64,000 nucleotides of DNA. Source: Erysipelotrichaceae bacterium (GTDB lineage: Bacteria; Bacillota_I; Bacilli_A; Erysipelotrichales; Erysipelotrichaceae). The position numbers and the translations under genes were made by a program. Position 1 is the first letter of the stretch, and every line of letters begins with the position of its first letter. The DNA lies in NCBI GenBank assembly GCA_017445225.1, contig JAFSUN010000001.1, positions 1 through 64,000 on the forward strand. The letters are read 5' to 3'. Positions 46,130 to 60,399 of this stretch are shown here, piece after piece. Below the pieces are notes generated by a model. That model saw only the letters and a program-made list of their open reading frames with translations, was not told the origin of the DNA and made no database searches.

Positions 46130-46156
46130 AATAAAACACCTCCCTGGGCGTTCAAA

Positions 46157-46235
46157 ACAGAACTCCCTACGCTAGCTTTAACTAGATCAGGTACTAAGGG
46201 TCTCTCTCAGCAGTTACGCACCCCTGTCCATCTGT
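46157..46235 (-). promoter_or_regulatory. TPP riboswitch (THI box) controlling thiT-ntdP
   Basis: On the minus strand it begins ACAGATGGACAGGGGTGC and contains CTGAGAGAGACCCTTAG, ACCTGATCTAGTTAAAGCTAG and the closing GCGTAGGGAGTTCTGT. All are the conserved TPP aptamer blocks in order. The short gap to the ribosome site (with GGGAGG) and no clear terminator suggest translational control. Confidence 0.96.
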
Positions 46236-57430: not shown

Positions 57431-59485
57431 TTAGTCTTCGTCGTCTTCGATCTTGGCTTCGGCAACAACCTTGTCGGTTACCATCTGCGGAGCGAATTCG
57501 TATCTGACAAACTCCTGAACATATGAGCCGTTACCGCCGGTCATGGAACGCAGTTCGGTTGCGTAGTTGACCATTTCAGCCATTGGTACTTCGGCAACGA
57601 TGACGGTGGTCTCATCATCGATGGCTCTGTTATCCATGATCATGCCTCTTCTCTTGGAGAAGTCGCCGTAGATGGTTCCTACGTATTCAGCAGGGATGGT
57701 AACTTCGGCCTTGATGATCGGCTCCAGCAGAGCTGGCTTGGCCTTCGGCATGCCGGCCTTGTAAGCCAGACGGGCAGCGCTCTTGAAGGCGATTTCCTTG
57801 GAGTCAACCGGGTGGAAGGATCCGTCAAACAGGGTAGCCTTGACATGGACGACCTTGTAGCCGGCTAATACGCCCTTGTTCATGCATTCTCTTAAGCCTG
57901 CTTCAACAGCCGGGAAGTACTGCTTCGGAACGGCACCGCCGACGACGGCTTCTTCGAAGACCATCTCTTCCTGCTCTTCACATGGCTGGAATCTGACCCA
58001 GACGTCACCGTACTGTCCGGCACCGCCGGTCTGCTTCTTATGCTTGCCTTCAACCTCAACGGTACCTCTGATGGTCTCACGGTACTGGACCTTCGGTTCG
58101 GTCAGATTGACTTCGACCTTGTATCTGTTTCTCAGCTTGTTGATGATGACATCGATGTGCTGGTCGCCGATACCGTATAATACCAGTTCTCTGGTTTCGG
58201 TATTGTTGACAACTTCGCATGAAGGGTCTTCTTCACGAATCTTGTTCAGACCGGAGCTCATCTTGTCTTCATCGTTCTTGCTCTTCGGCCAGATGGCCTT
58301 GCCCAGCATGCCGTGCGGGAATTCGATGCCCGGATAGGTGATTGGATTGGCCTTGGTAGCCAGGGTGTCACCGGTCTTGGTGTACTGGAGCTTTAAGACA
58401 GCGCCGATGTCACCGGCATTCAGCTTGGTGACCTTTTCCTGGTTCTTGCCTCTCATGACGACGATGGTGCCAATCTTTTCGTTTTCTTCGGCTCTGGTAT
58501 TGTAGGCCGGGGTCTCACCGGAGAGAACACCGGAGATGACCTTGACATAGGAGATCTGAGCGAAGGCATCGTTGACGGTCTTGAAGACGAAGGCGGAGAA
58601 GCTGCCGTTTGGATCAACGGCTACGTCGACCTTTTCGCCCTTGCCGTTGACGCCGCTCTTGACGACCTTGTCAGCCTTGGTGGCGTAGTCAGCGACGGCA
58701 TTTAACAGCACATCAACACCGACGTTCTTGGTGGCACTGCCGCACAGGATCGGTCTGATGGTGTCATTGCGTAAGCCATTGCCTAAGCCCTGGATGATCT
58801 CTTCATCGGTGAAAGGCTCGCCTTCGAAGTACTTCATGGTCAGCTCGTCGTCAGTCATGGCGATGGCTTCAACCAGGATATCATAGGCAGCATCGACCTG
58901 GCTGGCCAGGTGAGCAGGAACAGCGGCTTCGGCGCCGTTGATGTAAGCTTTCTTGGTGATGACGTTGACGATGCCCTTGGCCTTATTGCCTTCCATGACC
59001 GGCAGGGTCAGCGGTACGGCCTTGCAGCGTCTTTCCAGATCGGCAACGACCTTTTCATAGCTGGCGTTATCCTCATCAACTCTGGTGATGAAGAAGAACA
59101 GCGGCAGATCCTTATTGACGGCTTCATGATAGGCCTTCATGGTTCCGGACTGAACACCGTCCTTGGCGCTGACAACGACAACGACGTTATCGGCTACTGA
59201 TAAGGCAGCCTGCTTCTCACCGGCGAAATCCAGATACCCGGGGGTATCGAGGAAGTTGATCTTCTGGCCCTTCCACTCAACCGGTACCAGGTGAGTGTAG
59301 ATGGACATGCCACGTCTTACTTCTTCGGAATCGCTGTCGATGATTGAGTTGCCGTCAACGGCCTTGCCAAAACGGTCAGTGATCTTGTTGTAGTAGAGAA
59401 CTGATTCCAGTAACTCTGACTTGCCGGCTCCTGAATGGCCGCACACTGCTACGTTGATGATATTCTGTGATTCGTATTCTTTCAT
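57431..59485 (-). CDS. EF-G paralogue (EF-G2-like GTPase)
   Basis: A 684-aa translational GTPase of the second EF-G type. G1 is VAVCGHSGAGKSELLESVL, G2 RRGMSIYT, G3 FLDTPGYLDFAG. The G4 motif reads FFITRVDEDN, where NKxD is expected, so Asn-Lys are Thr-Arg. The C-terminal domains include RYKVEVNLTEPKVQYRETI and GDFSKRRGMIMDN, the family's ribosome-contacting regions, and an acidic tail. Such paralogues act in ribosome release, recycling or protection; the main fusA is not in this window. It follows the ankyrin gene by 10 nt. A leader ORF with a terminator lies upstream of the pair. Confidence 0.9.
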   Translation of the reverse strand: MKEYESQNIINVAVCGHSGAGKSELLESVLYYNKITDRFGKAVDGNSIIDSDSEEVRRGMSIYTHLVPVEWKGQKINFLDTPGYLDFAGEKQAALSVADNVVVVVSAKDGVQSGTMKAYHEAVNKDLPLFFFITRVDEDNASYEKVVADLERRCKAVPLTLPVMEGNKAKGIVNVITKKAYINGAEAAVPAHLASQVDAAYDILVEAIAMTDDELTMKYFEGEPFTDEEIIQGLGNGLRNDTIRPILCGSATKNVGVDVLLNAVADYATKADKVVKSGVNGKGEKVDVAVDPNGSFSAFVFKTVNDAFAQISYVKVISGVLSGETPAYNTRAEENEKIGTIVVMRGKNQEKVTKLNAGDIGAVLKLQYTKTGDTLATKANPITYPGIEFPHGMLGKAIWPKSKNDEDKMSSGLNKIREEDPSCEVVNNTETRELVLYGIGDQHIDVIINKLRNRYKVEVNLTEPKVQYRETIRGTVEVEGKHKKQTGGAGQYGDVWVRFQPCEEQEEMVFEEAVVGGAVPKQYFPAVEAGLRECMNKGVLAGYKVVHVKATLFDGSFHPVDSKEIAFKSAARLAYKAGMPKAKPALLEPIIKAEVTIPAEYVGTIYGDFSKRRGMIMDNRAIDDETTVIVAEVPMAEMVNYATELRSMTGGNGSYVQEFVRYEFAPQMVTDKVVAEAKIEDDED

Positions 59486-59495
59486 AAAACTCTCC

Positions 59496-60167
59496 TTATA
59501 CTAATTTCTCTTCTATTTCAGCATTATGATGACGTGTGACATAGTAATCATAAGCTTTCTTTCCATCACTGTCTCTGATGTCCTTGTCAGCACCCTGCAT
59601 CAGCAGCTGTCTGATCAGTTCATCATACCCCGCATAGCTGACCCTCATCAGAGCGGTACAGCCCATCCGGTCCTGGACGTTGACATCAGCGCCCCGGGCC
59701 AGCAGAACATCTATGACATTAACTGCTCCGGCACTGCAGGCCTCCATCAGAGCAGTACGTCCCTTCTCATCCTGGGCATTGACATCAGCCCCCGCCTTGA
59801 TCAGCGTTCTGGCGATTCCGTCATGCCCCTGGAATGCCGCTCTCATCAGGGCGGTATTGCCTCTGATGTCACTGGCATTTACGTCAGCACCGGCATCAAC
59901 GAGCATCTCCACGACCTCGCTGTAGCCCTTTTTGCAGGCGCCCATCAAAGCTGTCTTGTTGTTATCATCGACAGCGTCAATATCAACACCGGCATCAAGA
60001 AGAATCCGGGTAACCTGTTTCCTTCCTCTTCTTGTAGCACGCATCAGAGCCGTTCTGTGTTCTTCATTGACGGCATCAATGTCGACGCCGGCAGCGATCG
60101 CTTCTCTGATGAGATTGACATCACCGGATGCAGCAGCTTCTAAGTACTTCTGTTCCAACTGATTCAT
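59496..60167 (-). CDS. Ankyrin-repeat protein
   Basis: A 223-aa cytoplasmic protein of six ankyrin repeats of 33 residues, each with the TALM-A--G---V---L--AGADV pattern (for example NKTALMGACKKGYSEVVEMLVDAG and RTALMEACSAGAVNVIDVLL). The N-terminal cap begins MNQLEQKYLEAAASGDVNLI. No other domain. It is a protein-binding scaffold. It is cotranscribed with the EF-G paralogue, which could be its partner. GGAGGT precedes the ATG, but no good promoter is visible between it and the terminator at 60193-60217. Confidence 0.93.
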   Translation of the reverse strand: MNQLEQKYLEAAASGDVNLIREAIAAGVDIDAVNEEHRTALMRATRRGRKQVTRILLDAGVDIDAVDDNNKTALMGACKKGYSEVVEMLVDAGADVNASDIRGNTALMRAAFQGHDGIARTLIKAGADVNAQDEKGRTALMEACSAGAVNVIDVLLARGADVNVQDRMGCTALMRVSYAGYDELIRQLLMQGADKDIRDSDGKKAYDYYVTRHHNAEIEEKLV

Positions 60168-60192
60168 GTTCTACCTCCTAATAGTTCACTAT

Positions 60193-60217
60193 AATAAAAG
60201 GCGCTCAAAAAAGCACC
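60193..60217 (-). terminator. Terminator between the leader ORF and the ankyrin gene
   Basis: On the minus strand AGGTGC...GAGCGCC arms (60200-60205 with 60212-60217, one G-U pair) close a T loop; TTTTATT follows. It lies just after the leader ORF and 25 nt before the ankyrin start, the position of an attenuator. Confidence 0.75.
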
Positions 60218-60220
60218 TGA

Positions 60221-60319
60221 TTAATTGATCAACTTTAAACGAACCACCTCTAAGGTGGCCACCTCCCCGCCAGCGGTTTTACCTGTATTAAGCTTATCTA
60301 TGATACTACTAACTTTCAT
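60221..60319 (-). CDS. 32-codon leader ORF or small peptide gene
   Basis: A short ORF with full gene signals on the minus strand: promoter TTGAAT/TAAAAT with 17-bp spacing (60371-60399), a leader of about 45 nt, AAAGGAG 8 nt before the ATG at 60319, and a terminator just after the TAA. The peptide starts MKVSSIIDKLNTGK, has a Gly-Gly at 17-18 and ends LEVVRLKLIN; there are no Cys, Trp or membrane segment. Codons are more AT-rich than in the neighbours. The coding part holds GAGGTGG twice around CCACCT. As the ankyrin/EF-G genes downstream show no promoter of their own, it may be an attenuator leader peptide; a free small peptide is the alternative. Confidence 0.72.
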   Translation of the reverse strand: MKVSSIIDKLNTGKTAGGEVATLEVVRLKLIN

Positions 60320-60370
60320 TAGTGAAGCTCCTTTATCGATTAGAACCGTTATTGCACTTTCGGTATATAT

Positions 60371-60399
60371 ATTTTACTTATTTGCCTGTGATAATTCAA
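60371..60399 (-). promoter_or_regulatory. Promoter of the leader ORF (and perhaps the ankyrin/EF-G operon)
   Basis: On the minus strand TTGAAT (60394-60399), 17-bp spacer, TAAAAT (60371-60376). Confidence 0.72.

What the first reader, a model, noticed from the sequence alone, without database searches (positions are those of the whole stretch)
60167..60399. Unannotated 32-codon leader ORF with an attenuator before the ankyrin/EF-G operon
The order is promoter, ribosome site, 32-codon ORF, terminator, then the ankyrin and EF-G-like genes with no visible promoter of their own. Within the ORF, CCACCT (60253-60258) can pair with AGGTGG just after it (6 bp, 3-nt loop) or with the AGGTG arm of the terminator, so alternative folds are possible. 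Ribosome state in the leader could thus decide readthrough into a ribosome-linked GTPase, as in the tet(M)-type leader. This makes sense as a self-sensing translation stress circuit.
Basis: partly seen in the sequence, partly recalled or inferred. Interest (0 to 1): 0.75.

Follow-up and report, generated by a model that had tools for sequence, protein, structure and literature searches.

The report
Translated leader attenuator before EF-G paralog
Before a two-gene operon for an ankyrin protein and a second version of the translation factor EF-G, a gut-bacteria family (Erysipelotrichaceae) almost always has a tiny translated gene that ends exactly where a transcription stop signal begins, so that ribosomes probably decide whether the operon is transcribed.

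Summary
On the minus strand lie, in order, a promoter (60399-60371), SD, 32-codon ORF (60319-60221), intrinsic terminator (60218-60199), and an ankyrin and EF-G-like operon without its own promoter. The genome is an Erysipelotrichaceae-family assembly. The same architecture precedes the ank-EF-G2 operon across the family. An automatic search finds an SD-led ORF ending within -20..+23 nt of the terminator stem in 95 of 103 loci (11.9 expected from shuffles), in 44 of 49 genera; reading the misses by hand gives about 102/105 loci and 47/49 genera. Peptide sequences are unrelated between genera (pN/pS 0.81). What is conserved is the geometry: translation ends at the terminator's 5' arm. The proposed alternative fold with the terminator arm is no better than shuffled sequence and not conserved. 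A hairpin inside the ORF is conserved only in this genus and its neighbour. Best reading: a ribosome-controlled transcription attenuator with pyrBI/pyrE-like geometry, in which a ribosome at the leader stop blocks the terminator hairpin and lets RNA polymerase reach ank-EF-G2. Signal and sign are not shown. The EF-G paralog has PGY in place of the catalytic PGH motif. Many relatives, not this genome, have cre-like promoter sites. New variant of a known kind.

The parts
60371..60399 (-). Leader promoter: -35 TTGAAT (60399-60394), 17 nt, -10 TAAAAT (60376-60371)
   Evidence: promoters enriched at this position in relatives, 73% vs 24% in shuffles, -10 mostly 17-51 nt before the ORF
60328..60334 (-). 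Shine-Dalgarno AAAGGAG of the leader ORF
   Evidence: Read from sequence; an SD match of at least 4 nt was required of, and found for, the relatives' leaders
60221..60319 (-). 32-codon leader ORF MKVSSIIDKLNTGKTAGGEVATLEVVRLKLIN, stop TAA 60223-60221
   Evidence: C-terminal part similar in the genus, unrelated elsewhere; family-wide position
60244..60258 (-). Hairpin CCACC(T)-TAG-(A)GGTGG inside the ORF, possible RNA polymerase pause hairpin
   Evidence: Stem invariant in 6 aligned genus members and kept in the neighbouring genus g26, in one species with a shifted reading register; not family-wide
60190..60218 (-). Intrinsic terminator (attenuator): stem-loop 60218-60199 plus U-rich tract 60198-60190
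   Evidence: counterpart in 103/105 relatives, usually 24-60 nt before ank
59496..60167 (-). Ankyrin-repeat protein, 223 aa
   Evidence: Pfam Ank_2 E=6e-43; orthologue in 201/225 family genomes; in a class-wide sample found only in this family
57431..59485 (-). EF-G paralog (EF-G2-like, NF009381), 684 aa, G3 motif DTPGY, G4 motif TRVD
   Evidence: NF009381 797.8 bits, cut-off 583; next to ank in all loci where it could be seen; a separate canonical EF-G with DTPGH and NKMD lies elsewhere in the genome

Best explanation
The leader is a ribosome-controlled transcription attenuator of the ank-EF-G2 operon. RNA polymerase starts about 45 nt upstream of a short ORF. The ORF's stop codon sits at the first base pairs of an intrinsic terminator. 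If no ribosome is at the end of the ORF when polymerase reaches the U-tract, the hairpin forms and transcription stops. If the first ribosome has kept up and stands at or near the stop codon, its leading edge covers the 5' arm, the hairpin cannot form, and polymerase continues into ank and EF-G2. EF-G2 output would then follow the relative speed of the first ribosome and the polymerase, or the time a ribosome spends at the stop. SHOWN: the parts, their order, conserved geometry, no conserved peptide, no conserved antiterminator, no detectable promoter after the leader start. INFERRED: translation of the ORF, premature termination, occlusion as the switch, and the signal.
For: Stop codon within -20..+23 nt of the stem in 95/103 loci vs 11.9 expected, and within -3..+2 in 46 vs 2.6; 44/49 genera automatically, 47/49 with hand reading. 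Leaders are translatable (ATG in 94/95, SD mostly at 7-10 nt spacing) but not conserved as peptides (pN/pS 0.81), as expected if only the ribosome's presence matters. No antiterminator signal. A T-run just before the stem in 38/95 loci vs 5.6 expected could pause polymerase. In E. coli, moving a stop codon from 28 to 5 bp before a terminator dropped termination from about 90% to below 10%, and uncoupling translation abolished the repression (PMC4824070); pyrBI needs tight coupling across its leader (PMC5021804). In Holdemania massiliensis a frameshift against H. filiformis still leaves the stop inside the terminator (read from L235/L241).
Against: Bacillota are classed as 'runaway' transcribers in which polymerase outruns the ribosome (PMC13323073), so a ribosome may rarely arrive in time on a 30-codon leader; the known NusG pause motif is not enriched in the ORFs (29 loci vs 31.8 expected). 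Where ribosome attenuators have been tested in Firmicutes (bmrB, hflXr, vmlR), stalling and alternative folds turn the gene on. One species has an ORF running through the terminator and one genus has no leader. No expression data were available.
Confidence: 0.55

Rival explanations
1. Alternative-fold attenuator (the first reader's model, like hflXr, vmlR or the tet(M) idea): a ribosome stalled inside the ORF by drug or starvation lets the leader RNA form an antiterminator, giving readthrough under translation stress.
For: Ribosome-linked resistance and rescue genes in Firmicutes are regulated this way. The ORF contains a conserved hairpin in two genera. The gene product is a homologue of ribosome-protection proteins.
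Against: Complementarity of the ORF to the terminator 5' arm is at shuffle level in 94 leaders and in this one. The arm changes sequence within the genus. No shared stalling motif such as RLR in the peptides.
Confidence: 0.18
2. Fixed damping: the terminator is a constant partial terminator that keeps the operon low. The ORF stop next to it carries no signal.
For: Most terminators of ordinary genes lie within 50 bp of a stop codon (stated in PMC4824070). No regulator or signal is shown.
Against: A dedicated short ORF with its own SD and promoter, kept across 47/49 genera although its peptide is free to change, is not needed for a constant terminator. The sister family f2 has EF-G2 without any of it.
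Confidence: 0.17
3. An independent small-protein gene with its own terminator, by chance upstream of ank.
For: It has promoter, SD, ORF and terminator; valine is over-represented in the peptides (15% vs 3% off-frame).
Against: No sequence conservation between genera, pN/pS 0.81, no Pfam or NCBIfam match, and ank would be left without a promoter in most species.
Confidence: 0.05

Closest known systems
E. coli pyrBI (pyrL) and pyrE attenuators
   Same: A translated leader or upstream ORF reaches the terminator, and a close ribosome prevents hairpin formation (pyrBI: PMC5021804; pyrE from my own knowledge). The terminator is within a ribosome's reach of the end of translation.
   Different: Controls an EF-G paralog, not pyrimidine genes. 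Different phylum; no evidence for UTP sensing.
tet(M) leader of Tn916 (Su et al. 1992, listed in PMC5418344)
   Same: Attenuator before a ribosome-acting GTPase of the EF-G superfamily; short leader ORF and terminator (the latter from my own knowledge).
   Different: The downstream protein is an EF-G2, far below the Tet(M) cut-off (184 vs 1420 bits); there is an ankyrin gene in between; no drug link known. The original tet(M) paper was not read.
hflXr/rli80, vmlR, bmrB leaders
   Same: Firmicutes transcription attenuators with small ORFs; hflXr and vmlR stand before ribosome-acting proteins.
   Different: They use alternative RNA folds and drug-dependent stalling; neither is seen here.
Bacteroides EF-G2 (fusA2), induced on carbon limitation
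   Same: A second, divergent EF-G in gut bacteria under a carbon-related regulator (PMC6989115). Relatives here, in other genera and the sister family, carry cre-like sites at the promoter.
   Different: Below the Bacteroides EF-G2 cut-off (503 vs 1000 bits). Control there is by the activator BT4338; no leader attenuator is described in the passages read. The window's own promoter has no clear cre site.

Membership tests
Ribosome-mediated transcription attenuator (general) | Promoter, translatable leader ORF, intrinsic terminator, then the genes | tested here: met
Ribosome-mediated transcription attenuator (general) | Readthrough depends on leader translation | not testable with these tools
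   Needs RNA data or mutants
pyrBI/pyrE type | End of translation within reach of the terminator 5' arm | tested here: met
   95/103 loci within -20..+23 nt, 46 within -3..+2
pyrBI/pyrE type | No antiterminator needed | tested here: met
   ORF-to-arm pairing at shuffle level
pyrBI/pyrE type | Transcription pause signals in the leader | tested here: inconclusive
   T-run before the stem enriched (38 vs 5.6); NusG motif TTNTTT not enriched in ORFs
pyrBI/pyrE type | Controls pyrimidine genes, senses UTP | tested here: not met
   Genes are ankyrin and EF-G2; UTP response not testable
trp/his-type amino-acid attenuator | Run of regulatory codons and competing antiterminator | tested here: not met
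   No shared codon run, only diffuse valine enrichment; no antiterminator signal
Macrolide-type stalling leaders (erm, hflXr) | Stalling peptide motif such as RLR plus alternative fold | tested here: not met
   No shared motif in 95 peptides; no alternative fold with the terminator arm
Tet(M) ribosome-protection protein | Passes the Tet(M) or tet_protect model cut-off | tested here: not met
   184 vs 1420 and 293 vs 775 bits
EF-G2-like NF009381 (PRK12740.1-5) | Passes curated cut-off | tested here: met
   797.8 vs 583 bits
Bacteroides-type EF-G2 (NF058620) | Passes curated cut-off | tested here: not met
   503 vs 1000 bits

The most novel reading that the evidence does not exclude
A self-sensing loop: ribosomes that linger at the leader stop codon because termination, recycling or translocation is short of EF-G activity hold the terminator open and switch on a spare, possibly GTPase-poor EF-G2 together with an ankyrin partner. 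The operon would thus read out EF-G function directly, on top of carbon-catabolite control at the promoter in many species.
Probability: 0.18. Interest if true: 0.82.

Novelty: new variant of a known kind. Interest (0 to 1): 0.62.

Why it matters
If true, a whole family of gut bacteria controls a second EF-G by whether a ribosome stands at the end of a leader ORF whose sequence hardly matters. That would be a pyrBI-like coupling switch in a phylum thought to transcribe ahead of its ribosomes, and a natural, testable sensor of translation speed, termination or recycling. It also gives a regulatory handle on EF-G paralogs, whose role outside Bacteroides is little known.

Tried and rejected
Leader peptide as a conserved protein: a search of 60 genomes found only the window itself with significance, no Pfam or NCBIfam match. 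Known RNA family: none in Rfam at the leader, even at relaxed threshold. Antiterminator by complementarity: rejected. Generic stable leader fold: z -0.87. NusG-type pause motif TTNTTT in the ORF: not enriched, though enriched in the terminator loops (20 vs 9.6). Leader in the sister family: EF-G2 there has neither leader nor ankyrin. cre box in the window: 11/14, chance level. Papers joining ankyrin repeat, EF-G and Erysipelotrichaceae: none held. The EMBO J paper on the GTPase-less EF-G2 was not held.

Full report
WHAT IS THERE. All coordinates are on the minus strand. A sigma-70-like promoter (TTGAAT, 17 nt, TAAAAT; 60399-60371), an SD (60334-60328), a 32-codon ORF (60319-60221), an intrinsic terminator 2 nt after its stop (60218-60199, U-tract to 60190), then an SD and the ankyrin gene (60167-59496) and an EF-G-like gene (59485-57431). 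By itself this is not statistically striking: promoter and terminator counts in the 5-kb scan equal shuffles and the folded leader has z -0.87. Relatives decide the question.

THE OPERON AND ITS OWNERS. The ankyrin protein is made of ankyrin repeats. Its orthologue is in 201 of 225 genomes of the same family; in a sample of 296 genomes of the class, all 28 hits were from this family. Named records with the locus are Erysipelotrichaceae, including Traorella, Anaerorhabdus, Allobaculum, Faecalicoccus, Holdemania, Faecalitalea, Ileibacterium and Longicatena. The EF-G-like gene follows on the same strand in every one of the 105 loci except one cut by a contig end. It belongs to NF009381 (797.8 bits, cut-off 583) and falls short of the Tet(M), tet_protect and Bacteroides EF-G2 models. 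The genome has a separate canonical EF-G (35% identity) with DTPGH and NKMD; the operon's copy has DTPGY and TRVD, and PGY is kept in all other family copies that could be read. Tyr in place of the catalytic His suggests weak GTPase activity; that is inference.

THE LEADER IS FAMILY-WIDE, ITS PEPTIDE IS NOT. I took 105 upstream regions from 49 genera. A terminator was found before ank in 103. The best-SD ORF ends within -20..+23 nt of the first G-C pair of the stem in 95 of 103, against 11.9 expected when the sequence before the stem is dinucleotide-shuffled; 46 end within -3..+2 nt, against 2.6. The window limits were chosen after seeing the distribution, but the tight bin shows the same excess. 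By genus, 44 of 49 score automatically. Reading the misses by hand adds genera g5, g19 and g44 (wrong ORF or hairpin picked) and leaves g11 (no leader) and g64 (ORF runs through the terminator). These genera are related, so loci are not independent trials. But the peptides differ between genera, substitutions between close relatives are nearly neutral for the peptide (pN/pS 0.81), and lengths stay mostly at 20-37 codons. What is kept is a translatable ORF that ends at the terminator. Promoters are enriched before the ORF (73% vs 24%) and not after it (25% vs 26%). The sister family has EF-G2 without ankyrin, leader or terminator.

WHAT THE RNA DOES NOT SHOW. Pairing energy between ORF and arm is no better than with shuffled ORFs: mean z -0.03 over 94 leaders, p 0.60 for this one. 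Within the genus the arm is AGGTG, GGGTG or AGATG. The hairpin CCACC/GGTGG inside the ORF is real in this genus (stem invariant) and in the neighbouring genus g26, in one species with the reading frame shifted by a base relative to it. That is RNA-level conservation in two genera, perhaps a polymerase pause hairpin.

HOW IT PROBABLY WORKS. In E. coli, moving a stop codon from 28 to 5 bp before a terminator cut termination from about 90% to under 10% because the ribosome hides the stem, and uncoupling translation abolished this (PMC4824070). pyrBI uses this, with pauses keeping ribosome and polymerase together. The Erysipelotrichaceae leaders have this geometry almost without exception. Direct occlusion is therefore the simplest account: ribosome at the stop, operon on; no ribosome there in time, operon off. 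The main doubt is that Bacillota are thought to have runaway transcription (PMC13323073), so polymerase must pause for a ribosome to matter. A T-run just before the stem (38 of 95 vs 5.6 expected) and a T6 loop in this genus are candidate pauses; TTNTTT motifs are enriched in the terminator loops but not in the ORFs. The signal could be translation speed, polymerase speed (NTP supply), or slow termination or recycling; the last would make the system a sensor of EF-G function itself.

A SECOND CONTROL LAYER IN RELATIVES. cre-like boxes (>=13 of 14) lie at the promoter in 34 of 103 family loci and 13 of 20 sister-family loci, against 0.5-0.75% of shuffles, but not in the window's genus. Together with Bacteroides EF-G2, which is induced by carbon limitation (PMC6989115), this suggests that EF-G2 here serves lean times. 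That is inference.

VERDICT. New variant of a known kind.

Noticed in passing
L062, L100, L101, L126 promoters; L163-L175 (sister family) upstream of EF-G2: cre-like boxes (for example TGTAATCGTTTACA, TGTAACCGTTTTCA) at EF-G2 promoters, pointing to CcpA-type carbon control of EF-G2 in many species, though not in the window's genus.
   Followed up: partly
leader ORFs of 95 loci: Valine makes up 15% of leader residues against 3% off-frame and 7% in the ankyrin proteins, and 27 of 95 peptides end in Phe; no explanation found.
   Followed up: partly
L107, L235, L241 (Holdemania); L006-L008 in the genus: Gaps of about 105-115 nt (part of the genus) or 240-260 nt (Holdemania) between terminator and ank; a second regulatory RNA element there is possible.
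   Followed up: no
L023 and L122 (genus g11); L110 (genus g64): g11 has ank-EF-G2 but no leader or terminator; in L110 the leader ORF reads through the terminator toward ank.
   Followed up: no
window 46147-46235 (-): TPP riboswitch (Rfam RF00059, 63.7 bits).
   Followed up: no
window 57431-59485 (-): EF-G paralog with DTPGY/TRVD in place of DTPGH/NKMD; ankyrin gene as constant neighbour, likely a partner protein.
   Followed up: partly
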